Shown: one piece after another, positions 1 to 15,051 of the stretch
How the letters are laid out: every line of letters starts with the position of its first letter
How positions within the stretch are numbered: the stretch's first letter is position 1
IMG/VR virus record: IMGVR_UViG_3300027779_000152
Span: 1 to 24,327 of that record
DNA: 24,327 bases
DNA from: a virus
Direction: 5' to 3' (one strand)
Translations under genes and position numbers: made by a program
The notes under the pieces: model-generated
Database searches by the model: none
Told to the model about the DNA's origin: nothing
What the model saw: the letters and a program-made list of their open reading frames with translations, nothing else

Positions 1-912
1 ACTACTGTAGTAGATTTTAATTTTGATGCGGCAACAACTTCAACTGCAATGAGTATATCCGCAGATGGACTTGTTACAGGTACGGCCTTTAAAGTTGATA
101 GTGATTCTTCTGATACTGGTACAAGAAGTATTGCAAGTATAATTCAAAATCATTCCTCCGCAGTTGGTGCTACTGCACTTACAGTACAAGCTGATGCTGG
201 CAGAGGAATATTTATTAATACTGATCTTGCGGCCGGTGGATATGCACTTGAAATTGATGCAGAAATAACCACAACAAATACCGCCAAGATTGCAGCTATT
301 AGCACTAGTGGAACAACATTAGAAGTATCCTCTGTTGGTGTATTAACAGGAAAAGTTATTGATGTTACAGCCGATGCCGCCACTACTGGTACTGGTATTA
401 ATATGTCAATGGACGGATTAACTACTGGTGCAATGATGGCTCTTACTTCAGATTCTGCTGATACTGGAACAAGAACTTTAGTAACGATTACAAATGATAA
501 TGCCTTGGCAGTCGCGGCAGTTCCACTTGTAGTAACACAAGATTCTACGAATTGTGTAGCAAAATTTGTAGGAACATCAACAATAGTTGTTCCAGTTGGA
601 ACAACTTCCAATAGAGGTCCTTCTGTACAGGGTGGTATAAGATATAATACTACAACAAGTTCTTTTGAAGGATATAGTGGAGCAACATGGGCCGGTCTTG
701 GTGGACTTATTGATGTTGATCAAGATACAAAAATTCTTGCAGAAACATCAGCGGGAGCAGATAATGATGATTTAGATTTTTATACTCAAGGAACACAACG
801 GATGAAAATTGATGAAACCGGCGCAACAACAATTACAGGAAAATTAAGTGTTAAGGGTGGATATTCAGCGTATCATCAAATGACGCATGCCACATTGGCA
901 TTAGGATTATAA
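1..912 (+). CDS. Virion structural / tail-fibre-like protein, C-terminal part (5' end outside window)
   Basis: The frame is open from base 1, so the gene begins upstream; the first in-window ATG (49) is internal. The visible ~303 residues are Thr/Ser/Ala/Gly-rich and beta-predicted. They contain two copies of a ~60-residue unit built around DGLxTG...SDSxDTGTR (bases about 10-189 and 358-546). The C-terminal part has GGIRYNTTTSSFEGYSGATW and then a GTQRMKIDETGATTITG segment. Such phrases are usual at the ends of phage fibre or appendage proteins, where a trimeric shaft leads into a small head domain. No chaperone or peptidase motif is seen at the end. It is followed after 48 bp by a late-promoter-like AATAAATA and the next structural gene. 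The role as a distal tail or capsid fibre is inferred from composition and neighbours; the receptor-binding part cannot be identified. Confidence 0.75.
   Translation, partial: TTVVDFNFDAATTSTAMSISADGLVTGTAFKVDSDSSDTGTRSIASIIQNHSSAVGATALTVQADAGRGIFINTDLAAGGYALEIDAEITTTNTAKIAAISTSGTTLEVSSVGVLTGKVIDVTADAATTGTGINMSMDGLTTGAMMALTSDSADTGTRTLVTITNDNALAVAAVPLVVTQDSTNCVAKFVGTSTIVVPVGTTSNRGPSVQGGIRYNTTTSSFEGYSGATWAGLGGLIDVDQDTKILAETSAGADNDDLDFYTQGTQRMKIDETGATTITGKLSVKGGYSAYHQMTHATLALGL
10..546 (+). repeat. Two-copy ~60-residue protein repeat inside the fibre-like gene
   Basis: Copy one is about 10-189 and copy two about 358-546, offset by about 348 bases. Both read DAATT-T-MS-DGL-TG followed by SDS-DTGTR and then a hydrophobic beta stretch ending in VQAD or VTQD. 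At DNA level the copies have diverged, so this is an old internal duplication in a shaft-like structure and not a recent tandem repeat. Confidence 0.65.
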
Positions 913-960: not shown

Positions 961-1311
961 ATGGCAATTCCCAGCGGATCTGGAACGGAAGTACTAAAGA
1001 ACGCATTGTTCACCGTCACCGATACAACAGAAGCCAAACTGATTGATGGTGTTGCGAACCACGTATATACCGTTATAAGTATTTCGGTTTGTGAAACCGC
1101 AGGAGCAGCTGAAATTTTTAACTTGTTCATAGCTGATGACGGCGGTGCAACAGATTATGAAATTCTTTCAGATACATCAGTAAATGCAAATAAAACTTTT
1201 ATATTCAATGACCGGGTCGTATTAACAGGAACGGATGAATTAATATTTAAATCTAATGCAACTTGTGACATTGACATCGTGGTATCATATATCGATCAGG
1301 ACTGGAGTTAA
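961..1311 (+). CDS. Small beta-rich virion structural protein (116 aa), unnamed
   Basis: Family not recognised with certainty. The ATG is preceded by a good ribosome-binding site (AAAGGAGAA). The protein alternates hydrophobic and polar residues throughout, with segments such as HVYTVISISVCE, IFNLFIADDG and DIDIVVSYIDQDW, which suggests a single beta-sandwich domain of the decoration or appendage kind. There is no signal peptide or membrane segment. The plan (a strand pair near hYTVISISVCE and a final DIDIVVSYID strand) looks like the N- and C-terminal parts of the two Cys/Tyr-repeat proteins just downstream, which share KTWIAYGVCK and WLYYEEE strands. The three genes may therefore come from one fold family. 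Position between fibre-like genes supports a virion component; function unknown. Confidence 0.65.
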   Translation: MAIPSGSGTEVLKNALFTVTDTTEAKLIDGVANHVYTVISISVCETAGAAEIFNLFIADDGGATDYEILSDTSVNANKTFIFNDRVVLTGTDELIFKSNATCDIDIVVSYIDQDWS

Positions 1312-1314
1312 CAC

Positions 1315-1917
1315 ATGGCAAGAGGTAAAACAGGAGAAATAGGAGCACACGCACAAAAAATATTTAAAGCCTCTATTGCTGGTGCATCATTGCCGTCAAT
1401 TTCAGCCTCTAGTGTTCCAAAACATAAAACTTGGATAGCGTATGGAGTTTGTAAAACCGTTGAGGCCGCGGCTTATGCTATACAGACCGCCCAGACAACA
1501 GCTGTTGCAACATCAACTGTAACTACTAGAGGTGAAGCCGAATCTGGTGCAGACAGCGGAACCGGTGGTGGAACAGAAGGCGCTGCAGATAGTGGAACCG
1601 CTGGTGGAGTATTCTGTAATCACGGAGGTAGATATTACAGGGCACAGGGGTGTGCTAGATATTGTGCCCATTATTGTGCAAGATACTGTGCAAGATATTG
1701 TGCTCACTACTGTGCTAGATATTGTGGACTAGCGGGATACGGCTATGGTTTTGGATACGGCTATGGTTTTGGATTTGGATACGGATATGGAACAGCCAGA
1801 GGATATTCTGCAGACTGTACTGCAATTGCTGTTCATGGAAGTGGATCGTGGACCCAAATTGTTCCCGCAGGATTTACAGTAACTACATGGTTATATTACG
1901 AAGAAGAGGTTTGTTAA
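1315..1917 (+). CDS. Cys/Tyr-repeat structural protein, paralogue A (200 aa)
   Basis: Not a family I recognise. It starts 3 bp after the previous stop. Residues 1-60 (KIFKASIAGASLPSIS..KTWIAYGVC) and 165-200 (CTAIAVHGSGSWTQI...WLYYEEE) look like beta strands of one small sandwich domain. Between them is a long low-complexity insert. It comprises a Gly/Ser/Glu linker (about 70-100), a CNHGG motif (101-105), seven cysteines spaced exactly four residues apart (C113 to C137, units CARY or CAHY), and a Gly/Tyr/Phe tract (141-159, GYGYGF type). There are eleven cysteines in all. There is no signal peptide, so unless it is modified the protein is cytoplasmic until virion release. A second copy follows at once. 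The insert may be a surface-displayed, metal-binding or disulfide-bonded loop; this is inference. Confidence 0.75.
   Translation: MARGKTGEIGAHAQKIFKASIAGASLPSISASSVPKHKTWIAYGVCKTVEAAAYAIQTAQTTAVATSTVTTRGEAESGADSGTGGGTEGAADSGTAGGVFCNHGGRYYRAQGCARYCAHYCARYCARYCAHYCARYCGLAGYGYGFGYGYGFGFGYGYGTARGYSADCTAIAVHGSGSWTQIVPAGFTVTTWLYYEEEVC
1651..1725 (+). repeat. 12-bp coding tandem repeat (CARY/CAHY), six units plus a final Cys codon
   Basis: Units read TGTGCTAGATAT, TGTGCCCATTAT, TGTGCAAGATAC, TGTGCAAGATAT, TGTGCTCACTAC, TGTGCTAGATAT and then TGT. Third positions vary while Cys, Ala and Tyr are kept, and the third residue alternates Arg and His. This indicates protein-level selection on an array that may have arisen by slippage. 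Confidence 0.9.
1735..1791 (+). repeat. Gly-aromatic coding repeat (GY/GF dipeptides)
   Basis: Nineteen residues alternate Gly with Tyr or Phe. Codons are GGN followed by TAT, TAC or TTT, giving an 18-bp near-repeat (GGATACGGCTATGGTTTT) in the first part. The same tract follows the Cys repeat in the paralogue. Confidence 0.85.
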
Positions 1918-1953: not shown

Positions 1954-2562
1954 ATGTCAGGTATTGTAGGAAAAAAAGGCAGGACTGGCGAAGTTGAGGG
2001 GGTTGTATTTAAAGCTTCCATTAATACTACATCTTTACCAACGATTACGACTGCTAGCGTCCCAGTAGGAAGAACTTGGATAGCACATGGAGTTTGTAAA
2101 CTTGTTGAGGCCGCTACCATGTCTATAGGTGCAACATCAACGAACACAAAGGCAACCACACTATCGATGGGGCAAGGGGGAACCGGTGGTGGAGCAGAAG
2201 GCGCTGTAGATAGTGGAACAGCAGGTGCTGTAGATAGTGGAACCAGTGGTGGAGTATTCTGTAATCACGGAGGTGGACATTACAGGGCACAGGGGTGTGC
2301 TCAATATTGTGCTCATTACTGTGCAAGATATTGTGCTCACTACTGTGCTAGATATTGTGCAAGATATTGTGGAATAGCTGGATACGGATATGGATTTGGT
2401 TATGGTTATGGCTTTGGTTTCGGTTATGGATATGGAACCGCAAGAGGATATTCTGCACAATGTAAAGCCATTGCTGTTGCGGGAAGTGCTTCGTGGACCC
2501 AAATTATACCTGCAACTTTTTCGGTTACTTCATGGTTATATTACGAAGAAGAGCAGTGTTAA
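1954..2562 (+). CDS. Cys/Tyr-repeat structural protein, paralogue B (202 aa)
   Basis: Tandem paralogue of the upstream gene with the same plan: beta-like N-terminal part (to about residue 60), Gly-rich linker, CNHGG motif (103-107), seven cysteines at four-residue spacing (C115 to C139), Gly/Tyr/Phe tract (143-161), and a beta-like C-terminal part ending WLYYEEEQC. It also has eleven cysteines at equivalent places. The linker carries a doubled unit (GAVDSGTA then GAVDSGTS) absent as a pair in paralogue A. The two DNA sequences are nearly identical across the linker end, CNHGG motif and Cys array, but clearly diverged in the N-terminal third. This suggests gene conversion or strong constraint in the middle. 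The start has a strong AAGGAG site about 10 bases upstream. Probably a virion surface component; function unknown. Confidence 0.75.
   Translation: MSGIVGKKGRTGEVEGVVFKASINTTSLPTITTASVPVGRTWIAHGVCKLVEAATMSIGATSTNTKATTLSMGQGGTGGGAEGAVDSGTAGAVDSGTSGGVFCNHGGGHYRAQGCAQYCAHYCARYCAHYCARYCARYCGIAGYGYGFGYGYGFGFGYGYGTARGYSAQCKAIAVAGSASWTQIIPATFSVTSWLYYEEEQC
2296..2370 (+). repeat. 12-bp coding tandem repeat (CAQY/CAHY/CARY), six units plus a final Cys codon
   Basis: The order of third residues is Gln, His, Arg, His, Arg, Arg. The other paralogue has Arg, His, Arg, Arg, His, Arg. Unit number is the same but unit order differs, consistent with shuffling of units within or between the arrays. Confidence 0.9.
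2380..2436 (+). repeat. Gly-aromatic coding repeat (GY/GF dipeptides), second copy
   Basis: Residues 143-161 of paralogue B. The peptide is identical to the tract in paralogue A, but it uses different synonymous codons at several places. The peptide therefore appears to be under selection rather than recently copied. Confidence 0.85.
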
Positions 2563-2615: not shown

Positions 2616-3047
2616 ATGGCAGATATTGCACCAGGAGCATTTAATACGTTTAGTGATATGCGTTATAAACTAATGTTGAGGTATATTGCTGAATTAGAAT
2701 TAACACAATCAACTCAAGCGCCTGATAATCCAAGAGGTTTAACTGCTGCAGAAATAACAGCATTCAAAGCGTATAGGAAAGCATGGCACGATATAGCACA
2801 TGGTGATTTAGCTGGCGTACGTACAAATGAATTCGCTGAAATGATGTTACAAGGTATAGAGTTCCCAGAGTTTCCTGAAGGATGGAGAGTAACAACCCGC
2901 TCTGTTGGAGATTTACCTCCAATTCTTTGCAAAACGGACCACCTTGATGTATATGATGCAACTCTTGAACGTGATGAGGGTGATTTCACATTTACCATCA
3001 CAGATCACCGTATCGAAGGTGAATCAGATGAAGACGGGATTGCATAA
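2616..3047 (+). CDS. Small acidic protein, possible tail-fibre assembly chaperone-like (143 aa)
   Basis: The start is fixed by AAGGAG eight bases upstream. The protein is soluble, with a helical N-terminal half and no signal or membrane segment. Residues 43-60 (TAAEITAFKAYRKAWHDI) followed by FPEFPEGW (83-90) resemble the AYRxAxRDI...FPexvxWP pattern of small phage tail-fibre assembly/chaperone proteins that are encoded right after fibre genes. The C-terminal third (FTFTITDHRIEGESDED) is acidic. Position directly after fibre-type genes fits that role. The match is from memory of the motif only; alternatively it is an uncharacterised virion protein. Confidence 0.45.
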   Translation: MADIAPGAFNTFSDMRYKLMLRYIAELELTQSTQAPDNPRGLTAAEITAFKAYRKAWHDIAHGDLAGVRTNEFAEMMLQGIEFPEFPEGWRVTTRSVGDLPPILCKTDHLDVYDATLERDEGDFTFTITDHRIEGESDEDGIA

Positions 3048-3076: not shown

Positions 3077-3598
3077 ATGGAAATTATAGATAATTTTGTG
3101 CATCAAGAAAAATTTGATGAATTACAAGATTTGATTCTTGGTGCAAATTTTTCTTGGTATTATAATTCTATGATTGATTATGCAGAGGATGTAGACAAAT
3201 TTCAGTTCATCCATGGCTTTTATACCAACCATTCCCCATGTTCTCCATATTTTCACAATTTAAATCCCGTATTGGAAATAATAAATCCAATATCATTATG
3301 GCGTATAAAAGCAAATTTACTTACGATAACACCGAATATTGTTGAAAATGATTTTCATATTGATATGGGTGGCATATCAAATGAAAAATTAAACCAATTG
3401 ACAACAGCTATTTTTTATTTGAACACTAATAATGGGTATACTGAATTTCAGGATGGAAGAATTGCAATGGAAAACACTAAAGTTAAAAGTGTTGCAAATA
3501 GATTGGTTACTTTTCCGGCTAGCTTGAGACATCGTGGAACATCATGTACAGATGAAAAAAATAGAGTTGTTATAAATTTTGATTATTTTAAAGGTTGA
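3077..3598 (+). CDS. 2OG-Fe(II) oxygenase (173 aa)
   Basis: Cupin-type non-haem iron dioxygenase that would couple 2-oxoglutarate decarboxylation to oxidation of an unknown substrate. The iron triad is visible: H94-x-D96 in FHIDMGG, and H152 in SLRHRGT. R163 in KNRVVINFDYF is placed to bind 2-oxoglutarate. Strands TTAIFYLNTNNGYTEF and VANRLVTFPA match the double-stranded beta-helix core of the prolyl-4-hydroxylase-like superfamily. The length is short but typical for phage members. The ATG has only a weak ribosome-binding site. It is the first gene of the enzyme block, six bases before the glycosyltransferase gene. Phage 2OG oxygenases are common in T4-like cyanophages, with mostly unknown substrates. 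Confidence 0.85.
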   Translation: MEIIDNFVHQEKFDELQDLILGANFSWYYNSMIDYAEDVDKFQFIHGFYTNHSPCSPYFHNLNPVLEIINPISLWRIKANLLTITPNIVENDFHIDMGGISNEKLNQLTTAIFYLNTNNGYTEFQDGRIAMENTKVKSVANRLVTFPASLRHRGTSCTDEKNRVVINFDYFKG

Positions 3599-3604
3599 TT
3601 TATT

Positions 3605-4546
3605 ATGAATAATATAAAAAATATTTTATACTATTACCACGATTCATGTGGTTTGGGTGATTTTTATCTACTATTTCCCATATTTGACGCATTAAGAACT
3701 AAGCACAAAAATGACAATATTACTTTATTATCAAATGATACAATAAAAGATATTGCATATAATAAAAAATGGTTTGATAATTATGAAAATATTGTTGACT
3801 TTGATTTTCCAATAAATCGTTTTGATAGAGTTTATAACTGGGATGTTCAAAAACAGGGTATCACTTTATTCTATCCCCCCAAAAAACATTTCTGGGAAAT
3901 TGTTTCTGAAAATTTAGATATTACATTAAATAGATCCAACTTTTCTGATATCTTTCGATTAGAGTTGACAGCCCATGAGAAAGATCAAGTGGATCAAATA
4001 CTTTCAAAAGACAAAACCAACATCGTTCTTCACACAGGACATTCCTATAAATTTCCCTATGGTAAAACTCCCGATTATGAGTGGTGGTATAATTTAACAA
4101 CAGAATTACCTGATGCTAACTTTATTCAAGTTGGTACAAAACAGGAACCACCTGTTGATAGACCTTCTAGAATAGTTCCAGATTATCATATTCATGCCGA
4201 GAATTGTATTGATTTAAGAGATGAGATTAATCTTCGACAAGTTGCATATTTGCTTGAACGCACAGATACATTTGTTGCTATTGATTCAATTGTTGCTCAT
4301 TTATCATTACATTCAAATAAAAAAGGTATTGTGATGTGGGGTAGTTCTAATTCTAACACACATGGACATGAGCACAATATAAATTTGGAAGCAATACGTC
4401 ATTGTGGTAAACCTCCTTGTATTGATTTGGGAGGCTTCATTGTTCCAAATGATCAAAATCAAAACTGTTGCCTTATGCCTGACAATGTTAAAGAAGATGT
4501 TTGGCCACTTATGGCTGAAGTAGTACATGAGATAAATTCAATATGA
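3605..4546 (+). CDS. GT9-like glycosyltransferase A (313 aa)
   Basis: Resembles glycosyltransferase family 9, the ADP-heptose:LPS heptosyltransferase superfamily with a GT-B fold. The N-terminal SCGLGDFYLLFPIFDALR (14-31) corresponds to the family's GDxxxxxPxxxALR start. IVLHTGHSYKFP (140-151) begins the second Rossmann domain. FVAIDSIVAHLS (223-234) matches the conserved DSxxxH nucleotide-sugar-binding motif (D227, H232). The Cys-containing tail (PPCIDLGG...NQNCCLMPD) is also GT9-like. It would transfer a sugar to an acceptor in the cytoplasm. The donor is unknown; a heptose is not implied. Its stop overlaps the next start as ATGA, so the two glycosyltransferases are translationally coupled and probably act on one glycan. 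Confidence 0.75.
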   Translation: MNNIKNILYYYHDSCGLGDFYLLFPIFDALRTKHKNDNITLLSNDTIKDIAYNKKWFDNYENIVDFDFPINRFDRVYNWDVQKQGITLFYPPKKHFWEIVSENLDITLNRSNFSDIFRLELTAHEKDQVDQILSKDKTNIVLHTGHSYKFPYGKTPDYEWWYNLTTELPDANFIQVGTKQEPPVDRPSRIVPDYHIHAENCIDLRDEINLRQVAYLLERTDTFVAIDSIVAHLSLHSNKKGIVMWGSSNSNTHGHEHNINLEAIRHCGKPPCIDLGGFIVPNDQNQNCCLMPDNVKEDVWPLMAEVVHEINSI

Positions 4547-5391
4547 AAAATTTATATGTCGTACATGGAGGAATGGGAAAAAATATCCTTTTCACTTCAT
4601 TAATTCCATCTCTGTGTAAAAAAGATGGAGTTGAAAAGATTTCTGTAATGTCTCCCTGGCCTTTTATATTTCGTTACAATAAACAAATTGACGGGGTTGA
4701 GCCGTTTGATAGACAGTTTGGTTGGAAATTACATCCACACCTAACAAAATATGACAACATTATTTACCACGAACCGTATTATTCTAATTATATTATAGAT
4801 GAAAACATACACATGGTAGATGATTGGGCACGGGGGTTAGACATAGAACCTGTTATCAATAAACCGCATGTGCCGATAATGAATATTAAGGACGGCCACA
4901 CATTTTATTCCATATCTCCAGATGAAACTTGTGGTCCACCTGAAAAAAAATATTGTGTAGTTCATTTTAATGGTGGATACGGGCAACAAGGTGATAATAT
5001 AATTATTCCAAGAGATTATAGACTTGATCTCGTTCAAAAATTGATATCTAAAATTAGAAAAGAATTTAATTTAGATGTGATTTGTTTTCGACTACAAACC
5101 GAGCCAAAACCATCCGATACTATAACTTTTAAAGCAAATACTGAAGACGGCCTATTAAATATACTACCAATTATTAATGATTCAGAATTTGTTATTAGTA
5201 TAGATTCTTCATTAAAACATTTAGCGGCATGTACCGATACAAAAACAATAGCTCTTTATAATAAAACAGAAACACGTCCAGAAAAGATTGGATATAGTTT
5301 TCAAACTAATCTAATGTGTGAAAATGGTATTTGTATTGATATAGATCCTAAAACTATTTTCGATACAATTGAGAAAGAGTGTTATGGATAA
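4543..5391 (+). CDS. GT9-like glycosyltransferase B (282 aa)
   Basis: A second, diverged GT-B/GT9-type protein. VVHGGMGKNILFTSLIPSL (6-24) is the N-terminal glycine loop and helix. YCVVHFNGGYGQQGD (137-151) opens the C-terminal Rossmann domain. FVISIDSSLKHLAAC (216-230) is the DSSxxH motif (D221, H226), followed by TKTIALYNKTETRPEKIGY. It is shorter than typical heptosyltransferases (about 320-350 aa). The ATGA overlap with glycosyltransferase A and the 8-base overlap with the following oxygenase place it firmly in one operon. Donor and acceptor unknown. The two copies are dissimilar enough to suggest successive sugar additions rather than a recent duplication. Confidence 0.7.
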   Translation: MKNLYVVHGGMGKNILFTSLIPSLCKKDGVEKISVMSPWPFIFRYNKQIDGVEPFDRQFGWKLHPHLTKYDNIIYHEPYYSNYIIDENIHMVDDWARGLDIEPVINKPHVPIMNIKDGHTFYSISPDETCGPPEKKYCVVHFNGGYGQQGDNIIIPRDYRLDLVQKLISKIRKEFNLDVICFRLQTEPKPSDTITFKANTEDGLLNILPIINDSEFVISIDSSLKHLAACTDTKTIALYNKTETRPEKIGYSFQTNLMCENGICIDIDPKTIFDTIEKECYG

Positions 5392-6373
5392 AGGCTCTAT
5401 ATTCACCAGAGTACATAATAGAATAAATTATATTAATTTTCAAGAGATTTTCCCTCTTAAACCAGGACTAAAGGACCGTGTAGAACTTGTTAAATTAGAT
5501 CTAGGTGAAGACTATCCAGAACCTTTCAATTATTTCGTTACTCTACATGATGTATATCTATTTCCTGAACGAGTAAAAGAATATGCGGAATCTCTGCAAT
5601 ATACAAATGCGGCCAGTATTGTGAATTATGCTCCAGTATCTCGTACTTTCGGTCCAATTTCTATTGTTGTATATGAAACTCTTACTGAAATTATCAATAA
5701 TGTTTATGGTAGGCATTTCACACATTTTCCTCTAGATTATCTCGCCATGTTTTCATTTATATCCGATGATGCAATGACTTGGCACCGGCATAATGATGGA
5801 CATTATGACATTCAAGAAAATGACGAAAAAAATTTAAACGGTGTTTTACATTTAGAAGACCATATCGGCACAGAACTTATGGTGTATAAAGATCTTCCTC
5901 ATATGACCCGTCCGCTAAGTGGGGCATCTGCTACTTTTCCAAAAGGTGCAGATTCTCATCTTAAAACAATAATCCGATCCTCTGGAAAGTGTAATACACT
6001 AACTTGTTATTATGGTCACATTTTACATAGACCCGATTATCCAAGTCTCAAAGATACGCAAAAAGGTGGTCGGTTAACTCAAAACATGTTCTATGATGAT
6101 ATGACTAGGAAATATATTGGAGATAAAAGAGAAGAATCATCAAAAAAACAGTTCGAAGCAATTGAAGATTTTATTAAATATGATACAATGAATGATTTCT
6201 TACTGACTGAGGCAACGCCGTGGAAAGATAAAAAAACGCTGAACTTAACTCACAGTACCCACCACATAAATAAAATGGATGATCCCCTATTATCAAAATA
6301 TATTAAAGCAAAAAAAGAATCAGGACTATATGATATAATATTTAAAAAGGAAAAGGAAATTGGACAAAATTAA
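5384..6373 (+). CDS. 2OG-Fe(II) oxygenase-like protein, possibly DUF6445-type (329 aa)
   Basis: I start it at ATG 5384, which overlaps the previous stop by 8 bases. An upstream in-frame TTG (5369) would overlap further and has no better ribosome-binding site. Residues 50-110 (FVTLHDVYLFPERVKEYAESL) form the helix-rich entry seen before iron/2OG folds. The triad is H136-x-D138 in TWHRHNDGHYD, then H212 or H215 in YYGHILHRPDY, and R230 in GGRLTQNMF. The strand pair GVLHLEDHIGTELMVYKD is the core beta-helix. The general pattern recalls DUF6445 proteins, which are often encoded beside tryptophan halogenases in bacteria, and the next gene here is such a halogenase. The C-terminal ~90 residues are extra and unassigned. 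Substrate unknown. Confidence 0.65.
   Translation: MDKGSIFTRVHNRINYINFQEIFPLKPGLKDRVELVKLDLGEDYPEPFNYFVTLHDVYLFPERVKEYAESLQYTNAASIVNYAPVSRTFGPISIVVYETLTEIINNVYGRHFTHFPLDYLAMFSFISDDAMTWHRHNDGHYDIQENDEKNLNGVLHLEDHIGTELMVYKDLPHMTRPLSGASATFPKGADSHLKTIIRSSGKCNTLTCYYGHILHRPDYPSLKDTQKGGRLTQNMFYDDMTRKYIGDKREESSKKQFEAIEDFIKYDTMNDFLLTEATPWKDKKTLNLTHSTHHINKMDDPLLSKYIKAKKESGLYDIIFKKEKEIGQN
6353..6362 (+). promoter_or_regulatory. Ribosome-binding site deciding a TTG start
   Basis: The sequence AAAAGGAAAAGGAAAT runs directly into TTG at 6360. No ATG or GTG lies in frame between the upstream stop (6336-6338) and the GxGxxG-like loop of the halogenase. TTG is therefore the only sensible start, and it is supported by AGGA motifs. 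It overlaps the preceding gene by 14 bases. Confidence 0.7.
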
Positions 6374-7970
6374 AAAAATAATAATTGCCGGCGGTGGTTC
6401 TTCCGGTTGGATGACAGCATCTTGTTTAATTAAAAATTGCCCAGATATACAAATTACTGTAATTGATACGGAAACTATTCCAATAATTGGAGTAGGAGAA
6501 TCTACCATTTTACATATAAATGATTTTTTACGAAATTTAGATTTAGCTGATGATGTTTGGATGAAATATTGTAATGCTACTTATAAATTATCAATAAATT
6601 ATACAAATTGGAATGGTGATGGTAAAACCTATAGATATCCTTTTAGTGAATCAAGATGGATGGATAAGTATAAACCAATTGACTGGTTTATTAAAGAATC
6701 TGTTATGGGTACAAATAATAGTTCAGAATATTGTGATTTTGCGGTCAATACAGGCGAATTGATGCGAAATAACAAATTAGTAAAGTATAGTGAATATATT
6801 CCTGGTTGGAATTTTGATTATAATACCGCATATCATTTTGACGCGGCTTTGTTTGCAAAATTTTTAAAAAATGAATATTGTATTCCTAAAGGCGTACAAC
6901 ATTTTAATGATAGAATAATTGATGTTGAAAAGTGTGAAGATGGTTCTATTAAATCACTAATGACTGAAAAATCTAATAAAATGTCGGCAGATTTATATAT
7001 TGATTGTACCGGATTTAAATCTTTATTATTAGAAAAAAGTTTACAAGAACCTTATATTTCTTTTGGTGATAAATTAATTAATGACAAGGCTGTAGCGACA
7101 CATTTATCTTATGTTGATAAAGAAGTAGAACTAGTACACAATACAGATGCATATGCCCTATCTTCAGGTTGGGTATGGAATACTCCTCTTTGGAATAGTA
7201 TTGGTACGGGTTATGTATATAGTTCTCAATTTTTAACAGAAGAAGATGCAGAAAAAGAATTTAAAGATTATTTAATTAATGAAAGGAACGTTGTTCATTC
7301 ACGTAAAGAAGTAGAAAATCTAACCTTGCATCATGTACCTATTCATTCGGGTATACATGAACGAGCCTGGGTAAAAAATGTTTGTGCGATAGGATTATCG
7401 TATGGATTTGTTGAACCTTTAGCTTCTACTGGATTAATGTTCATTACACGCCAAGCTCAAAATTTAGTAAATATATTAAAAAGAAGAAAAAATAATGCGG
7501 TAACAGGTATAAGTAGGTCTATCTATAACAACCAGGTTAAAGATATGGTATTACAGGGTTATGAATTTATTTGTGCACATTATGCATTTACTGAAAGACA
7601 GGACAGCCCTTATTGGAATTATCTAACAAATGAACTAGATTACTCTGTAGAAAATATTATTAAAGATTCATTATTTATTGATGTTATTCCAAAGAAAATG
7701 TGTAATACATATAATAACTGGTGGAATACTGCAGGACGGGCTGATGATTTTCTTCTTTTTATTGTAGCCGGCTGTGGTTTTAATCCTACAGAACATATTT
7801 TTACAGATTTAGTTTTAAATAATCACGTAGGATCTAACACCACATTACTTGATGAATCTACACGGCTTAATAAAGATATTATAGAATATCGAAATAAACA
7901 ACGTAATTATGTTAAAACATTACAAACACATTATCAATTCTTAAAAAATACAATTTATAAGGAAGAATGA
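6360..7970 (+). CDS. Flavin-dependent halogenase, tryptophan-halogenase family (536 aa)
   Basis: This family uses reduced flavin, O2 and halide to make hypohalous acid, which halogenates electron-rich aromatics. Visible are the FAD-binding loop IIIAGGGSSGWMTA (7-20), GVGEST (44-49), and K76 in NATYKLSINY at the place of the catalytic lysine (PrnA K79). Further matches are AYHFDAALFAKFL (157-169), YIDCTGFKSLL, and the family signature W-x-W-x-x-P (W271, W273, P276) with SGWVWNTP. VEPLASTGLMF (351-361) matches the PrnA EPLESTG loop, but the residue equal to PrnA E346 is alanine (A355). Length is normal for the family (about 500-540). The TTG start has a good ribosome-binding site and the end overlaps the next gene by ATGA. 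A virus-encoded member, VirX1 from cyanophage Syn10, is known and iodinates varied substrates, so a phage halogenase has precedent. Partner flavin reductase not seen here; substrate unknown. Confidence 0.93.
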   Translation: MDKIKKIIIAGGGSSGWMTASCLIKNCPDIQITVIDTETIPIIGVGESTILHINDFLRNLDLADDVWMKYCNATYKLSINYTNWNGDGKTYRYPFSESRWMDKYKPIDWFIKESVMGTNNSSEYCDFAVNTGELMRNNKLVKYSEYIPGWNFDYNTAYHFDAALFAKFLKNEYCIPKGVQHFNDRIIDVEKCEDGSIKSLMTEKSNKMSADLYIDCTGFKSLLLEKSLQEPYISFGDKLINDKAVATHLSYVDKEVELVHNTDAYALSSGWVWNTPLWNSIGTGYVYSSQFLTEEDAEKEFKDYLINERNVVHSRKEVENLTLHHVPIHSGIHERAWVKNVCAIGLSYGFVEPLASTGLMFITRQAQNLVNILKRRKNNAVTGISRSIYNNQVKDMVLQGYEFICAHYAFTERQDSPYWNYLTNELDYSVENIIKDSLFIDVIPKKMCNTYNNWWNTAGRADDFLLFIVAGCGFNPTEHIFTDLVLNNHVGSNTTLLDESTRLNKDIIEYRNKQRNYVKTLQTHYQFLKNTIYKEE

Positions 7971-9238
7971 ATTTTAAAAACCGATTTTCTATTGCCCATC
8001 CTGAAAAAGATATGAAGGATTTTCCTAATCATTATTATTTGGTTTTGAAAAATACCCCACAATCTATTTTAGATGAAATTGAAGATATTTACTTTGGAAA
8101 AATGTTTTATTACACATATAGGAGACAAAGAAAATTTGTCGGTAATGCTATGGGGCAAGAAGCGACCGATGGACATATAGATAGTCTTCTCCGAATACAA
8201 GAGGAGCTTGGAGTTGAAGTTTCTCTTACAATGAATCAAACTGTATGGCCTAATGAAATGATTCTAGAACAAACTCTACAAGATGAGTTTGTAGAATGGA
8301 TTGGTAAGTATTATGATAGAGGATTAAGAAGCTGTACAATTTCTTCCAAACATTTAATGAGGACAATGAAATTACAACATCGATGTCCTAATATGAAATG
8401 GAAGAATACTGTAAACCATATAATATCTGATGGACAACAAGTAGCCGATACAATAGGAATTGGTTATGATACAATACTTCTTGATCGTTCATTAAATAGA
8501 AACATTAAAGAGTTAAGAAGAATTAATAAGTTAATACAAAGACAAACAAGGCCGGTAAAAACATCGCTTCTCGTATCAGAGGGGTGTTTATATAGTTGTC
8601 CTTTTAAATTAGAACATGATATGTCATCTACAGTTATAGGTGGAAACTATTGGGGTGGTGACAATGCTCTTTCGGCTCTTTCGTGTAATAATTGGAAATC
8701 TGATGAAATGGATAGACTACCAAGAAATGGTATTGACATGGTTACTACTGATAAAGAAATGTTAGATCAATATTTGGATAAGAAGGTGGGAGGAGTAGAC
8801 ATACTAAAAACTTCTGGTAGATTTGATGGCCGATTCTATAACAAATATTCTGAAGATGATATTAAAAATAAGAATATAAAATTAATGAGACAGTTGAGAG
8901 TACAGAAAAAATTCTATACTGACCCGCCACCTTTAGTTGCATCATCATTTGGTGATGTTTATGAATTGAATGCAGTTCCTTTTGATCAATGGTTATTACT
9001 TTATCCAACAGAAGATGAAGCAAACTTAACAAAAGATAGTTACCAAAAGTATTATGATGAATATTTACAGGATGAACTTTGGTTATCTGAAAAGGGTAAG
9101 AGGTTGAATAGAATACTTTTAAATTGTAAATCACAATGTTATGATTGTCATGAATGTGAAAGAACATTTGGAATACCAGATTATGACAGTTCAATAAATG
9201 AAATAGATGCAGAAGAAAGATTTGCCAGAGTGAGTTAA
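7967..9238 (+). CDS. U32-peptidase-like Cys-rich protein, possible Fe-S TIM-barrel (423 aa)
   Basis: The ATGA overlap ties it to the halogenase. Segments recall the U32 family TIM barrel: VEVSLTMNQTVWPNEM (83-98), IGYDTILLDRSLNRNIKEL (165-183), LLVSEGCLYSCPFKLEH (201-217), a middle VGGVDILKTSGRF (274-286), and Cys-rich NCKSQCYDCHEC (386-397). Cysteines C207, C211, C240 and C387/391/394/397 could hold one or two iron-sulfur clusters. Known U32 members with Fe-S clusters (UbiU/UbiV, TrhP, RlhA) act in hydroxylation of ubiquinone or RNA rather than proteolysis. I see no radical-SAM CxxxCxxC near the N-terminus. The assignment is by motif memory and moderate. An oxygen-transfer or maturation role in the same pathway as the halogenase is inferred from coupling. 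Confidence 0.55.
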   Translation: MNFKNRFSIAHPEKDMKDFPNHYYLVLKNTPQSILDEIEDIYFGKMFYYTYRRQRKFVGNAMGQEATDGHIDSLLRIQEELGVEVSLTMNQTVWPNEMILEQTLQDEFVEWIGKYYDRGLRSCTISSKHLMRTMKLQHRCPNMKWKNTVNHIISDGQQVADTIGIGYDTILLDRSLNRNIKELRRINKLIQRQTRPVKTSLLVSEGCLYSCPFKLEHDMSSTVIGGNYWGGDNALSALSCNNWKSDEMDRLPRNGIDMVTTDKEMLDQYLDKKVGGVDILKTSGRFDGRFYNKYSEDDIKNKNIKLMRQLRVQKKFYTDPPPLVASSFGDVYELNAVPFDQWLLLYPTEDEANLTKDSYQKYYDEYLQDELWLSEKGKRLNRILLNCKSQCYDCHECERTFGIPDYDSSINEIDAEERFARVS

Positions 9239-9239
9239 A

Positions 9240-10481
9240 ATGAATATATTAGGAATAAATGGATCTGTGGGCTGGGATGGAAATATTGGGGTTATTAATG
9301 GTCAAGATTATTGGGTACATGGATCAGGAGCTACATTATTTATAGATGGAGAATTAAAAGGTTCTTTGTCAGAAGAACGATTAACAAGATTAAAATATGA
9401 TGGTGGTTATCCAAAAGCCGTTATTGGTCAACTTCTCCTAAAGAATGATTTAACAGTAGATGATATTGATATAGTAGCTTATGTAAGTAATGCATGTATG
9501 ATGGCATATAGTTTAAAGTTGCAGGGGCACACTAATAAATTATTATCATCTATATTTCCAAATGCAAAGATGATGTTTATAGATCATCATTTAGCTCATA
9601 CAGCCGCTTCCTTTTTATCATCAGGTTTTTCAGAATCTAATATATTTTCGTTTGACGGCGCTGGTGATTTTTATCCTACTATGGGTCAACGTTTAAAGTT
9701 AAATAATTCTGTTTTTTCTAATGGTTTCCGTGATAATAAAGACATAGTACCTTTACAGCAAACATTTTTAGATGAAAATTTTAATTTGTTTGGTTCTTTA
9801 TATACAGAATTTTCATCAATGATTTATCAGCTTAAAGTTGAGGGTAAGATAGAAAATAAAATGATAGATGATTATGCAAAAGTACAGGCTGAATTAAATC
9901 TTACTACATTTGATTCGGCTGTTGATATGACAGATTATGAATATAAGTTTGATGATAATATGTATATGGGCCCCATTTTACGTGAAACTCATCCTGGTAA
10001 AATTATGGGATTGGCTTCTTATGGGGATTATAATAATATTGATGTTCCAGATATATTTGATTTAATATTTTATGATAATATGCCAGTTATACATCTCAAT
10101 CAATCGTTAAAGAGGGTTATTTTTAATAAATGTGAAAATTCTGAGTTTAAAGCAGAGGATTTAGCTAGTTGGTTACAACATCAATTTGAAAAATATTTAT
10201 TAATATATTTAAATAATATCCCAGAAAAATATAAATTAAAAAAATTGTGTCTAGCTGGTGGTTGTGCATTAAATATCATTACAAATTCTAAAATTATAGA
10301 AGATGGTATATATGAAGATGTCCATGTTAATACGGCGCCAAATGATGATGGATTAAATTTTGGTGCTGCAATTTACTGTACGTGGAAAAATGAAAAAGAC
10401 TTAATACTACCTGAAAATATTGGTTGTATCGGATTCGATTATCCACTTAATAATATAGAAGAATATGAAAATAAAACATAA
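9240..10481 (+). CDS. Carbamoyltransferase, N-terminal Kae1-like domain (413 aa; split gene)
   Basis: NodU/CmcH/TobZ-type O-carbamoyltransferase, which transfers carbamoyl from carbamoyl phosphate via a carbamoyl-adenylate to a hydroxyl of a sugar or small molecule. Visible are MNILGINGS with SEERLTRLKYDGGYP (44-58), the metal-binding IDHHLAHTAASF (114-125; H116, H117, H120), FDGAGD (138-143), a later HPGKIMGLASYG, LAGGCALN, and APNDDGLNFGAA. The family normally runs on for ~180 residues in a second domain. Here the frame stops at 10481, and that domain is encoded in the +1 frame from 10465. The start is 1 bp after the preceding stop. Either a genuine two-subunit arrangement, a frameshift, or a base error explains the break. 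Confidence 0.85.
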   Translation: MNILGINGSVGWDGNIGVINGQDYWVHGSGATLFIDGELKGSLSEERLTRLKYDGGYPKAVIGQLLLKNDLTVDDIDIVAYVSNACMMAYSLKLQGHTNKLLSSIFPNAKMMFIDHHLAHTAASFLSSGFSESNIFSFDGAGDFYPTMGQRLKLNNSVFSNGFRDNKDIVPLQQTFLDENFNLFGSLYTEFSSMIYQLKVEGKIENKMIDDYAKVQAELNLTTFDSAVDMTDYEYKFDDNMYMGPILRETHPGKIMGLASYGDYNNIDVPDIFDLIFYDNMPVIHLNQSLKRVIFNKCENSEFKAEDLASWLQHQFEKYLLIYLNNIPEKYKLKKLCLAGGCALNIITNSKIIEDGIYEDVHVNTAPNDDGLNFGAAIYCTWKNEKDLILPENIGCIGFDYPLNNIEEYENKT

Positions 10482-11034
10482 AAAATATGAAAATTTTAAC
10501 AATTTATGTGAAATAGTTGTTGATGCTTTATTGGAAAACAAAATAATCGGATGGTTTCAAGGTAAAAGTGAATTTGGTCCTAGAGCTTTAGGGAATAGGT
10601 CTATACTAGCAAATCCAACTATTAAAGACAATAAAGATTATATTAATGAGAGAATAAAACATCGGGAAAGTTGGAGGCCATATGCGCCAATTATGCTAGA
10701 AGAATATTTACATGATTGGTATGACATTCCTAAAAAATCTTCACCTTACATGTTATTTAATGCTACTATTTTACCTGAAAAAGATGGTCAAGTACCCGCA
10801 GTAACTCATGTAGATGGAACGGCCAGAGTACAGACAGTAACCAAAGAATTAAATAAACCAGTTTTTCAGTTATTAACCGAATTTAATAAAAGAACTAATG
10901 TTCCTATATTATTGAACACATCATTTAATGTTGGTGGAGAACCTATAGTAGAATCCCCTGAAGACGCGATAAAAACATTTAAAGGTTCAAATATTGATGT
11001 GTTAGTTATGGGAAATTATATAGTTACAAAATAG
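10465..11034 (+). CDS. Carbamoyltransferase, C-terminal domain (189 aa; split gene)
   Basis: Matches the C-terminal domain of NodU/CmcH carbamoyltransferases: IIGWFQGKSEFGPRALGNRS (28-47), then RESWRPYAPIMLEE, SSPYML, HVDGTARVQTV and PILLNTSFNVGGEPIVESPEDA. This half carries conserved substrate-binding parts and is not known to act alone. Its ATG lies 17 bases inside the preceding frame, with GAAG upstream as a weak ribosome-binding site. Its frame is closed by TAG at 10456-10458, so any frameshift fusion must occur between 10459 and 10478. Joined, the two parts give a protein of about 595 residues, normal for the family. It is the last gene of the enzyme block, and a 74-bp gap with a late promoter follows. 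Confidence 0.85.
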   Translation: MKIKHKKYENFNNLCEIVVDALLENKIIGWFQGKSEFGPRALGNRSILANPTIKDNKDYINERIKHRESWRPYAPIMLEEYLHDWYDIPKKSSPYMLFNATILPEKDGQVPAVTHVDGTARVQTVTKELNKPVFQLLTEFNKRTNVPILLNTSFNVGGEPIVESPEDAIKTFKGSNIDVLVMGNYIVTK

Positions 11035-11052: not shown

Positions 11053-11060
11053 TATAAATA
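11053..11060 (+). promoter_or_regulatory. Late promoter, exact TATAAATA
   Basis: Exact T4-type late -10 octamer 48 bp before the GTG at 11109, in the 74-bp gap between the enzyme block and the structural run beginning with the Ig-like protein and gp13. It restarts transcription of the structural genes independently of the upstream block. Confidence 0.75.
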
Positions 11061-13333: not shown

Positions 13334-14277
13334 TGTTAGGAACAACTTATTATCATGAAACTATTAGAAAATATGTAGCAATTTTTGGTACACTTTTTAA
13401 TGACATAAACATTCAAAGGAGAAATTCAGCTGGTGTTATAACAGAACAGATTAAAGTTCCTATTTCATATGAAGCCAAAGACAAATTGATTCTTCGAATG
13501 AGGGCAGTACAGGCTGATGAGGGTGTTTCAACAACCCTTCCAAGAATGGGATTTTCTCTAACTGGAATTACTTATGATGGAACTAGGAAATTAAATACTT
13601 TAGGTCAAACTTATGCCGCAAATACTGCTGCGGGAACCAGTTCCCTTATGAAGCAGTATAATCCTGTTCCTTATAATTTTGATTTTACATTGTCGGCATT
13701 GGTAGATAATTCAGAAGATGGTGCACAGATTTTTGAACAGATTGTTCCTTTCTTTACCCCAGAATTTACAGTTAGTGTGAATTTAGTTGACGCCATGAAT
13801 ATTAAGCCTGATATTTCTATAATATTAAATGGTGTTTCCCTTGAAGATTCATACGAAGGTGAACTTAGTTTAAAGAGAGAGATTATATGGACTTTGAATT
13901 TTCAAATAAAAGGATATATCTATCCAGATATCAAGTCTGGGTCAATTACTAAAAGTGTAATCGTAAATCTTAGAATGCCTTCAGAAGAGGTAGATGTTCC
14001 AGAATATATTGTCTTAGAAGACAGCACAGATTTTTCAGTTAACTATTTACTGTTGAATGCAGATGCTGGGTCTCCAGACGCAACAGGAATAATGAAGTTC
14101 ATAACAGAAACTAGTTCAACAGGAACAGGAGCAGCAGGAATTAAATCAAGATTAACAGTTACACCTGGACCGGGAGATGTCACCGCGAATGATGATTTTG
14201 GTTATACACAAACTTTTGAACATTTTAATGACAATATAGATGTGAATTTGACAACCGGATTAGATGTGAATCTGTAG
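13333..14277 (+). CDS. 15: Tail sheath stabiliser / tail terminator gp15
   Basis: The start TYYHETIRKYVAIFGTLFNDI (5-25), followed by QRRNSAGVITEQIKVPISYEAKDK, fits T4 gp15, the hexameric ring that caps the tail tube and sheath and binds the neck. Further matches are LPRMGFSLTGITYD, MKQYNPVPYNFDFTLSAL, EQIVPFFTPEF and LSLKREIIWTLNFQIKGYIYPD. It is longer than T4 gp15 (314 against 272) because of an extra C-terminal ~85 residues rich in Thr/Gly and acidic residues. The TAG stop shares its G with the GTG start of the next gene. Confidence 0.9.
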   Translation: MLGTTYYHETIRKYVAIFGTLFNDINIQRRNSAGVITEQIKVPISYEAKDKLILRMRAVQADEGVSTTLPRMGFSLTGITYDGTRKLNTLGQTYAANTAAGTSSLMKQYNPVPYNFDFTLSALVDNSEDGAQIFEQIVPFFTPEFTVSVNLVDAMNIKPDISIILNGVSLEDSYEGELSLKREIIWTLNFQIKGYIYPDIKSGSITKSVIVNLRMPSEEVDVPEYIVLEDSTDFSVNYLLLNADAGSPDATGIMKFITETSSTGTGAAGIKSRLTVTPGPGDVTANDDFGYTQTFEHFNDNIDVNLTTGLDVNL

Positions 14278-14648
14278 TGTTATTTCGGATTCTTTTAGTA
14301 ATTTTAATGATGACTTCTTTTTCATCGGTTTCCGCAGCCCAAAAAGGAGTATATAAAACTGAAGATATTTTATTGTTGTTTAAGTCTTGTTATGAAACCA
14401 TTCATTTTTTAGGTACTACAAAATATAAAAGAAATAAACATACATTAACTGAAATAGATATATCTAAACAATGTTTTTGTGTATGTGATAAAGTTAGAGA
14501 AAAACATAACCCTAAACATTTTTTAGTGAAATCACCTTTAGAAATACATAATATTATTACTCCTCTGGCTAATGATTGTTTAAAAGAAACTGGACAGTCT
14601 TGGTATGATGATGTAGAACCTGATATGGAGAAGAAAGATGACAGTTGA
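14277..14648 (+). CDS. Small secreted Cys-containing protein of unknown function (123 aa)
   Basis: Not recognised. A GTG start in TAGTG overlap with gp15 is the only one in place. Residues 1-20 form a clean signal peptide: positive R4, hydrophobic LLVILMM, and a likely cleavage after VSA (18-20). There is no lipobox cysteine. The mature part has C38, CFCVC (66-70) and C101, which suggests disulfides in the periplasm, and a charged EPDMEKKDD end. Such an exported protein is unusual inside a neck/terminase operon, where T4 has nothing between 15 and 16. It could be a periplasmic effector, a superinfection or lysis accessory, or an envelope modifier; none is supported beyond the export signal. 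The end overlaps gp16 by 11 bases. Confidence 0.65.
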   Translation: MLFRILLVILMMTSFSSVSAAQKGVYKTEDILLLFKSCYETIHFLGTTKYKRNKHTLTEIDISKQCFCVCDKVREKHNPKHFLVKSPLEIHNIITPLANDCLKETGQSWYDDVEPDMEKKDDS

Positions 14649-15051
14649 TGATCGTATAGATGAAATATTAGAAATTACAAGTTTAGTTCCTACTCCGGAA
14701 ATAAAACCGGAGACCAGCCCAAGAATTAAACCGAATTCTGATAGTGATGTTAAACATGATGACATTGATTATAATTATGCCCGTGAAAATTACTACAATC
14801 TAATCGAAAGAAATCAAGACGCAGTAGAAGAGATGTTGGAGATTGCTAAACAATCTGAACATCCACGCGCGTTTGAAGTAGTTGGTCAATTGATTAAATC
14901 TGGATTAGATGCAAATAAAGAATTAATGTCTCTACATAAAACCAAAAAAGAACTAAGTATTGAAACAAATAGTAGTGTTAATGTTAATAATGCAGTCTTT
15001 GTAGGATCTACTGCCGAATTACAAAAACTATTAAAGGCAAAGCGTGGCTAA
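14638..15051 (+). CDS. 16: Terminase small subunit gp16
   Basis: Recognised by YNYARENYYNLIERNQDAVEEM (45-66) and LEIAKQSEHPRAFEVVGQLI (67-86), the conserved core of T4-like gp16. This subunit forms rings, recognises DNA and modulates the gp17 ATPase during packaging. The N-terminal ~40 residues are acidic and Pro-rich. The C-terminus ends in AELQKLLKAKRG. At 137 residues it is slightly shorter than T4 gp16 (164). In T4 gene 17 follows directly; here an oxygenase gene intervenes, with its GTG start overlapping the gp16 stop by 8 bases. Confidence 0.9.
   Translation: MTVDDRIDEILEITSLVPTPEIKPETSPRIKPNSDSDVKHDDIDYNYARENYYNLIERNQDAVEEMLEIAKQSEHPRAFEVVGQLIKSGLDANKELMSLHKTKKELSIETNSSVNVNNAVFVGSTAELQKLLKAKRG

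What the first reader, a model, noticed from the sequence alone, without database searches (positions are those of the whole stretch)
3077..11034. Coupled operon of halogenase, oxygenases, glycosyltransferases, U32-like protein and carbamoyltransferase inside a phage late region
Eight adjacent frames (seven functions if the split gene is one) are joined by gaps of 1-6 bases or by overlaps of 4-17 bases. They sit between fibre-type genes and gp13. Oxidation, halogenation, sugar transfer and O-carbamoylation are tailoring reactions of natural-product or surface-glycan pathways, but no NRPS/PKS core or sugar-nucleotide synthesis gene is visible. This points to a pathway that modifies an existing substrate: host LPS, a host metabolite, or virion protein. 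I do not know a described phage system with this full set.
Basis: partly seen in the sequence, partly recalled or inferred. Interest (0 to 1): 0.88.

Follow-up and report, generated by a model that had tools for sequence, protein, structure and literature searches.

The report
Phage tail-tip chemical modification cassette
A marine virus of bacteria carries, in one block beside the genes for the tip of its tail fibres, enzymes that add oxygen, halogen, sugar and carbamoyl groups; the block is swapped between related viruses together with its tip protein, so it most likely decorates the virus's own host-gripping tip rather than serving host metabolism.

Summary
The block is real. Eight tightly packed frames (3077-11034) encode a 2OG oxygenase, two GT9-like glycosyltransferases, a DUF6445/2OG-like protein, a VirX1-type flavin halogenase, a divergent U32-like protein and a carbamoyltransferase made as two proteins. 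It lies between tail-fibre genes and gp13 of a T4-like phage. Ten related contigs (IMG/VR, two MAGs) keep the order, and wherever they reach far enough they also carry two or three odd fibre-tip proteins with [RH]YCA and GYGYGF repeats. Phages with 96% identical gp13 lack tips and enzymes together; homology resumes right after the block's last stop codon. The halogenase is an optional insert: the nearest relative lacks it cleanly. The pattern is general: a Gly-rich fibre tip occurs in exactly 20 cultured-phage records, all 20 with a VirX1-type halogenase, and the U32-like family lies beside a tip gene in 60 of 60 testable loci. I conclude this is an exchangeable receptor-binding-tip cassette with its own tailoring enzymes, most likely modifying the tip post-translationally. 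The literature I could read files such genes as auxiliary metabolism. The substrate is inferred, not shown (confidence about 0.6).

The parts
1..912 (+). C-terminal part of a fibre-type virion protein (open at the window edge)
   Evidence: phrog_6005 virion structural protein, E 1.2e-27; 99% identical in L006 but 56-72% in the other cassettes, while gp13 stays at 80-97%
961..1311 (+). small conserved ORF in front of the tip genes, probably a fibre or tip protein
   Evidence: present in every cassette that reaches this far; no Pfam or PHROG family
1315..1917 (+). YCA tip protein 1: beta framework with an insert of [RH]YCA repeats and GYGYGFG; proposed substrate
   Evidence: aligned; repeat region 4 amino-acid changes in 54 codons against 61 in 143 elsewhere, with 20 synonymous differences in each (YCA1 against YCA2); AF2 pLDDT about 75-86 for the two flanking beta parts, about 30 for the insert
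1954..2562 (+). YCA tip protein 2, paralogue of the first; proposed substrate
   Evidence: no match in 50,697 cultured-phage records
2574..2581 (+). T4-type late promoter sequence TATAAATA before the block
   Evidence: 5 of 6 plus-strand copies lie in intergenic DNA (2.7% of the window), expected 0.38, Poisson P about 5e-5
2616..3047 (+). small ORF, possibly a fibre assembly chaperone; one or two copies per cassette
   Evidence: Phage_tail_APC only at E 0.14; conserved position
3077..3598 (+). A: 2OG-Fe(II) oxygenase
   Evidence: PF13640 28.3 bits; phrog_274 E 5.9e-46; shared with L006 only
3605..4546 (+). B: GT9-like glycosyltransferase
   Evidence: PF01075 25.2 bits, cut-off 22; present in every cassette
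4543..5391 (+). C: GT9-like glycosyltransferase
   Evidence: PF01075 26.3 bits; one or two copies in relatives
5369..6373 (+). D: DUF6445/2OG-like oxygenase
   Evidence: PF20043 17.2 bits, below cut-off; paralogues at 54 and 38 bits; invariant H220, R235 and Q238
6360..7970 (+). E: VirX1-type flavin-dependent halogenase, optional insert
   Evidence: PF04820 E 1.8e-104; best solved match VirX1 6qgm, E 3e-111 over residues 2-533; window 6349-7961 replaced by 22 bp in L006
7967..9238 (+). F: divergent U32-like protein with invariant Cys, candidate oxygen-independent hydroxylase
   Evidence: C207, C211, C240, C387, C391 and the K281..G284-R285 motif invariant in 14 relatives, C394 and C397 nearly so; hhalign to U32 56-73%; Foldseek 5d88 E 7.8e-6 from a poor model
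9240..10481 (+). G: carbamoyltransferase N-terminal (Kae1-like) half as a separate protein
   Evidence: PF02543 105 bits; HHLAH at 116, DGAGD at 139, GGCALN at 340
10465..11034 (+). H: carbamoyltransferase C-terminal (YrdC-like) half as a separate protein
   Evidence: PF16861 233 bits; 4e-56 to 7xb6, 1.5e-37 to TobZ
11053..11060 (+). late promoter TATAAATA and right edge of the exchanged block
   Evidence: conserved in cassette-bearing and cassette-free relatives; homology to L014/L017 resumes just after the CbC stop codon
11109..11453 (+). backbone gene next to gp13, like an L-shaped tail fibre assembly protein
   Evidence: phrog_3304 E 3.7e-9; 93-94% identical in cassette-free phages

Best explanation
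The region is an exchangeable receptor-binding-tip cassette: one or more fibre-tip proteins plus the enzymes that chemically finish them. Proposed mechanism. (1) The tips (YCA1/YCA2) are made late together with the enzymes. (2) The 2OG and DUF6445-type oxygenases and the U32-like protein hydroxylate residues of the exposed [RH]YCA / Gly-aromatic insert. (3) The two GT9-like enzymes put sugar on the hydroxyls. (4) The two-protein NodU/TobZ-type carbamoyltransferase carbamoylates sugar or side-chain hydroxyls. (5) Where present, the VirX1-type halogenase halogenates aromatic side chains (Tyr or Trp). The finished tip is assembled on the fibre and changes host binding or resistance to host and environmental attack. 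SHOWN by sequence: the enzyme families, conserved order, joint gain and loss with the tip genes, the optional halogenase, selection on the tip repeat, late-promoter-like sites at both ends. INFERRED: that the tip is the substrate, the order of reactions, the residues, and the benefit.
For: (a) Same order of tips and enzymes in ten contigs besides the window; every one that reaches upstream carries YCA tips. (b) Against L008 the backbone is 96-97% identical (gp13, gp14) while fibre, tips and enzymes are mostly 48-84% (D 25%); L014/L017 have gp13 at 96% and no block at all, with homology resuming right after the CbC stop: fibre, tips and enzymes are exchanged together. (c) gp13-anchored loci of 8 kb or more: a known tip family and F/halogenase both present 7, both absent 25, enzyme only 1, tip only 0; Fisher P 2e-6, loci not fully independent. 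(d) F family: 60 of 60 loci with 4.5 kb upstream carry one of three tip families. (e) Halogenase: a Gly-rich tip family (PHROG tail fibre) is found in 20 cultured-phage records, all 20 among the 24 with full-length VirX1-type halogenase; S-RIM44 isolates with gp13-15 97.6% identical have both or neither. In IMG/VR 38 of 51 testable halogenase loci have a tip family, and 57 of 80 have 2OG oxygenase genes. (f) YCA repeat under strong purifying selection while the rest of the protein diverges. (g) Weak family matches of the halogenase to QhpG and LodB, flavoproteins that from general knowledge act on protein-bound Trp: a precedent for protein substrates.
Against: No modified residue has been seen. 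L097 and L098 have three YCA genes with no enzyme gene nearby, though these fragments are 8.8 and 5.0 kb. 13 of 51 testable halogenase loci have no recognised tip family within reach, and S-B64/S-H35 carry the halogenase among replication genes. Linkage also fits enzymes that rewrite the host surface for the same receptor. The GT9 family is best known for LPS core sugars. F is U32-like only on weak evidence. Several F-locus tips were used as queries for the 60/60 count, so it shows consistency rather than an independent test.
Confidence: 0.6

Rival explanations
1. The enzymes rewrite the host's cell surface (LPS or capsule) late in infection, to stop superinfection or to keep progeny from sticking to debris. 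Tip and enzymes travel together because both concern the same receptor.
For: GT9 is the LPS heptosyltransferase family; NodU-type enzymes carbamoylate sugars (general knowledge); linkage to the tip is also expected here.
Against: Late-promoter-like sites and position inside the virion operons fit virion maturation better than takeover of the host surface. Halogenases, runs of 5-11 2OG oxygenases and a U32-like enzyme are not glycan chemistry. No membrane-anchoring or sugar-nucleotide gene is in the window.
Confidence: 0.17
2. A small-molecule tailoring pathway or auxiliary metabolism (halogenated indole or antibiotic, 2-oxoglutarate or nitrogen status), as published for cyanophage prnA, 2OG oxygenases and carbamoyltransferase.
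For: Published assignments: PMC9964418, PMC3037559, PMC9146016, PMC10452541. A second, shorter halogenase class does lie near psbA, hli and nrd genes (S-MbCM6, P-SSM2). L207 has GT, halogenase and carbamoyltransferase genes without a tip in the DNA held.
Against: Joint gain and loss with the fibre tip has no reason under this view; no core biosynthesis gene is present.
Confidence: 0.12
3. DNA hypermodification, with the carbamoyltransferase acting on hydroxymethylated cytosine as in the 5hmC carbamoyltransferase of MetaGPA phages.
For: That carbamoyltransferase has the same two Pfam domains and modifies 5hmC (PMC8670742).
Against: The published clusters pair it with a thymidylate-synthase-type hydroxymethylase and dCMP deaminase; none is seen in the window, though most of the genome is unseen. 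Here the partners are fibre tips.
Confidence: 0.03
4. No joint pathway: unrelated late-region genes piled up at a recombination hot spot.
For: The interval before gp13 is a hot spot with varied content, and the halogenase comes and goes.
Against: B, C, F, G and H are kept in constant order in every cassette down to 48-66% identity for B, C, F and G, and the tip families track the enzyme families.
Confidence: 0.08

Closest known systems
VirX1, the viral flavin halogenase of cyanophage Syn10 (PDB 6qgm)
   Same: Full-length match, E 3e-111; 37% identical to the Syn10/Syn9 gene; also located behind fibre-tip genes in its Syn9 relative.
   Different: Known from the literature for iodinating small substrates in vitro; no tip link is mentioned in the papers I could read. 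The window gene lies with GT, U32-like and carbamoyltransferase genes, not with a run of 2OG oxygenases.
NodU / TobZ-type O-carbamoyltransferases
   Same: Both domains with the expected motifs.
   Different: Made as two proteins, often with a gene between them; acceptor unknown.
U32 family (UbiU/UbiV, TrhP, RlhA)
   Same: Partial profile alignment over about 110 columns, conserved Cys and a K-x-x-G-R motif; U32 structure as best fold match.
   Different: Below Pfam detection; extra C-terminal C-x3-C-x2-C-x2-C; often fused to a methyltransferase in cyanophages.
5hmC carbamoyltransferase clusters of phages (MetaGPA, PMC8670742)
   Same: Phage-borne carbamoyltransferase with the same Pfam domains.
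   Different: That cluster has a hydroxymethylase partner; this one has fibre tips, GTs and a halogenase.
Bacterial adhesin and flagellin glycosylation islands (from general knowledge, not tested here)
   Same: Modification enzymes encoded beside the surface protein they modify and swapped with it.
   Different: Here in a phage, for a fibre tip, and with halogenase, oxygenases, U32-like and carbamoyltransferase genes.

Membership tests
VirX1-type flavin-dependent halogenase | FAD motif GxGxxG, WxWxxP, catalytic Lys (PrnA K79) and Glu (PrnA E346) positions | tested here: met
   G11, G13, G16, K76, W271, W273, P276 and E352 invariant in the alignments
VirX1-type flavin-dependent halogenase | best match to VirX1 over the full length | tested here: met
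   6qgm E 3e-111, residues 2-533
VirX1-type flavin-dependent halogenase | halogenating activity | not testable with these tools
   needs biochemistry
NodU/TobZ carbamoyltransferase | Carbam_trans_N and Carbam_trans_C domains | tested here: met
   105 and 233 bits
NodU/TobZ carbamoyltransferase | HxxxH-type and GGCALN motifs of the Kae1-like half | tested here: met
   HHLAH 116, GGCALN 340
NodU/TobZ carbamoyltransferase | both domains in one polypeptide | tested here: not met
   two frames, with a whole gene between them in relatives
U32 (UbiU/V, TrhP, RlhA) | match to the Pfam U32 profile PF01136 | tested here: not met
   no hit for F, L093 or L264 homologues nor in the six-frame search of the window
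U32 (UbiU/V, TrhP, RlhA) | profile similarity, cluster Cys and C-terminal K-x-x-G-R | tested here: inconclusive
   hhalign 56-73%; motif residues invariant in F and in the three E. coli paralogues of A11; Foldseek 5d88 from a model with pLDDT 46
GT9 glycosyltransferases | PF01075 above the curated cut-off | tested here: met
   25.2 and 26.3 bits, cut-off 22
Fibre-tip cassette with tailoring enzymes (proposed here) | tip gene and enzymes gained and lost together | tested here: met
Fibre-tip cassette with tailoring enzymes (proposed here) | tip protein carries the modification | not testable with these tools
   needs virion mass spectrometry
5hmC DNA carbamoylation cluster | thymidylate-synthase-type hydroxymethylase beside the carbamoyltransferase | tested here: not met
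   no such gene among the window ORFs; partner described in PMC8670742
NRPS/PKS biosynthetic cluster | core assembly-line gene | tested here: not met
   none among the window ORFs or cassette neighbours

The most novel reading that the evidence does not exclude
T4-like phages of the sea and other waters build non-canonical chemistry (halogenated and hydroxylated aromatics, O-carbamoylated glycans) onto their receptor-binding tips with dedicated, exchangeable enzyme cassettes, each enzyme set matched to one tip family. This would be the native role of the viral halogenases and of the runs of 2OG oxygenases now filed as auxiliary metabolic genes.
Probability: 0.5. Interest if true: 0.93.

Novelty: new variant of a known kind. 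Interest (0 to 1): 0.82.

Why it matters
Flavin halogenases and long runs of 2OG oxygenases are common in cyanophages and related phages. The papers I could read assign them to antibiotic synthesis, nitrogen status, DNA repair or simply auxiliary metabolism, with no native substrate. The coupling found here gives them a concrete and testable substrate, the adjacent fibre tip. If right, it adds halogenation, hydroxylation and carbamoylation to the ways in which phages vary their adhesins, and it would mean that tip sequence alone does not define host range in these phages. It also offers enzymes that may act on peptide-bound Tyr or Trp.

Tried and rejected
Single-protein search of IMG/VR with the halogenase: nothing; an alignment query later gave 593 relatives. 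AF2 of F and of YCA2: low confidence (mean pLDDT 46 and 48), so only the top fold match of F is used, and weakly. PF01136 in the window: none. Carbamoyltransferase half and Gly-rich tip in contigs whose halogenase has no tip nearby: weak carbamoyltransferase matches in two, no tip, and no positive control for the tip query. Considered and rejected: frameshift or assembly error in the carbamoyltransferase (refuted by the inserted gene in relatives); a natural-product cluster (no core gene); a tie between the halogenase and a Trp in the tip (hal-minus L006 and hal-plus L093 both have the Trp, so no rule). A Fisher value printed used an arbitrary total and is not relied on. TATAAATA counts for the whole window are not significant (7 against 4.8); only their intergenic placement is. 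Paper searches for a published link between halogenase or oxygenase and tail fibres found none, but most subscription papers, including the VirX1 paper, are not held.
Full report
OBSERVATION. The window is a 24,327-base IMG/VR virus fragment from the late region of a T4-like phage; its portal protein is 54-55% identical to those of cyanophages and Pelagibacter phage Mosig. Domain scans give a 2OG oxygenase, two GT9-like proteins, a DUF6445-like protein, a Trp halogenase, a protein without a Pfam family, and the N and C domains of a carbamoyltransferase in two frames. PHROG names A's family 'DNA endonuclease V' (phrog_274), but Pfam and the neighbours say 2OG oxygenase.

THE UNIT IS BIGGER THAN REPORTED. 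Just upstream lie two paralogous proteins (1315-1917, 1954-2562) with five or six [RH]YCA tetrapeptides followed by GYGYGFGYGYGFGFGYGYG. The repeat part is almost invariant at the protein level (4 changes in 54 codons between the paralogues, with 20 synonymous differences), while the rest differs at 61 of 143. The model has confident beta structure only at the two ends, with the repeat as an unmodelled insert. I read these as fibre-tip proteins that display the repeat; they match no Pfam or PHROG family and no cultured phage.

CONSERVED ORDER. A search with F found six close relatives and other searches added more. The order fibre, 961, YCA x2-3, 2616, GT, GT(GT), D, [halogenase], [methyltransferase], U32-like, [2OG], CbN, [DUF6445], CbC, 11109, gp13 holds with small variations across L006, L007, L008, L009, L010, L011, L029, L045, L065 and L093, and in two contigs binned with Pelagibacterales and SAR202-type Chloroflexi MAGs (L262, L263). 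L007 is close to L008/L009, so I speak of about ten related contigs rather than twelve. Two of the cassettes, the window and L093, carry a halogenase.

MODULARITY. L006 is 91% identical in DNA on both sides but lacks window 6349-7961, replaced by 22 bases: the halogenase is an optional insert. In all cassettes checked other than L006 and the window, CbN and CbC are separated by a DUF6445-type gene or an ORF-sized gap, so the carbamoyltransferase is truly a two-protein enzyme.

EXCHANGE AS A BLOCK. L014 and L017 have gp13 96% identical to the window and no block: a fibre gene is followed directly by 11109 and gp13. DNA homology to the window resumes right after the CbC stop codon, at a late-promoter-like sequence. 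Against L008, gp13 and gp14 are 96-97% identical, while fibre, tips and enzymes are mostly 48-84%, and D only 25%. Fibre, tips and enzymes are therefore replaced together. TATAAATA copies lie in intergenic DNA five times where 0.38 are expected, including before 2616 and before 11109.

GENERALITY. (i) Halogenase. Of the 80 nearest IMG/VR relatives, many show Gly-rich tips, a small ORF, [F-like], [2OG], halogenase, then 5-11 2OG oxygenases, then gp13-15; 57 of 80 have 2OG genes. Where 4.5 kb upstream is available, 38 of 51 have a recognised tip family. In 50,697 cultured-phage records the Syn9 Gly-rich tip is found in 20, all of them among the 24 records with a full-length VirX1-type halogenase; RefSeq duplicates are included, so this is 11 of 11 named phages with the tip, and 11 of 13 with the halogenase. 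S-RIM44 isolates carry both or neither with gp13-15 97.6% identical; the isolate without has a short stretch with another tip and one 2OG gene. The exceptions S-B64 and S-H35 have this halogenase and no such tip; in S-B64 it lies among replication genes. A second halogenase class (26-30% identical) lies near psbA, hli and nrd genes. (ii) F family. 123 cultured cyanophage records have a relative, in several cases fused to a methyltransferase, behind 'sericin-like' proteins of a third tip family. In IMG/VR, 60 of 60 testable F loci have one of three tip families upstream. Some of those tips served as queries, so this shows consistency. (iii) gp13-anchored loci: 7 with both, 25 with neither, 1 enzyme only, 0 tip only.

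F AS U32-LIKE. No Pfam match. hhalign with E. coli U32 proteins gives 56-73% over 110 columns ending just before the first conserved Cys, against 0.5% for a halogenase control. F keeps K281, G284 and R285 like the KIEGR of U32, plus C207, C211 and C240. Its only fold match below 1e-3 is a U32 peptidase, from a poor model. U32 is likely but not proven.

MECHANISM. U32 enzymes and 2OG oxygenases hydroxylate (general knowledge), GTs can glycosylate hydroxyls, NodU/TobZ-type enzymes carbamoylate hydroxyls, and VirX1-type enzymes halogenate aromatics. Taken in that order they form a plausible route on a displayed Tyr/Cys/His/Arg-rich loop. The core kept in every cassette is GT, GT, F, CbN and CbC; halogenase, methyltransferase and extra oxygenases vary. 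The route, the residues and the benefit are inference.

WHAT IS KNOWN. Published readings of these genes are antibiotic protection by PrnA (PMC9964418), 2OG and nitrogen status or DNA repair (PMC3037559), auxiliary metabolism including carbamoyltransferase as nucleotide metabolism (PMC9146016; PMC10452541). I found no paper that ties them to fibre tips, within a library that lacks most subscription journals. The DNA-carbamoylation system of PMC8670742 shares the carbamoyltransferase but not the partner genes.

VERDICT. Best reading: a tail-tip cassette with its own tailoring enzymes (0.6). The coupling of tip and enzymes is the strong result; the substrate is the open step.

Noticed in passing
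window 15044-15754 and 17388-17996: Two more 2OG oxygenases (PF13759) flank the terminase gene gp17.
   Followed up: no
window 17980-18468, minus strand: ORF with a weak match to a homing-endonuclease zinc loop (PF05551, E 0.04), between a 2OG gene and gp18; 94% identical in L008. Possibly a free-standing homing endonuclease.
   Followed up: partly
window 14277-14648: Small protein with a signal-peptide-like start between gp15 and gp16; no PHROG match.
   Followed up: no
L097 5477-7532 and L098 1157-3212: Three YCA tip genes plus the 11109 gene sit inverted between gp14 and gp15 of a more distant phage, with no enzyme gene in the fragment.
   Followed up: partly
L154 6266-14982, L156 11605-13164, L250 7258-14796: Other mixtures of fibre or tip genes, F-methyltransferase fusion, halogenase(s) and 2OG or DUF6445-like genes; L250 lies next to gp13.
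   Followed up: partly
L193 and L207 (13073-17644 in L207): GT, halogenase, unknown, CbC, CbN in a row in contigs without a recognised tip gene; three halogenase genes on each stretch.
   Followed up: partly
L068 461-7201: Cassette with Cys/Gly-rich tips, F-like gene, methyltransferase-like gene and 2OG gene between fibres and gp13 of a phage with gp13 72% identical.
   Followed up: partly
L264 5881-7188, L265 5926-7182: Homologues of F (43%) in deltaproteobacterial or proteobacterial MAG contigs, with no phage genes nearby: a possible cellular source.
   Followed up: partly
S-SZBM1 virion proteome table (PMC9146016): Fibre proteins 51-54 were detected, the Gly-rich tips 48-50 are not listed, though each has 8-9 tryptic peptides of usable size. 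This could mean low copy number or modification.
   Followed up: partly
cultured phages S-MbCM6 (L103) and P-SSM2 (L104): A second, shorter phage halogenase class (T4-GC 212) lies in the photosynthesis/nucleotide gene region, away from fibres, so phage 'prnA' genes are of two kinds by place and sequence.
   Followed up: yes
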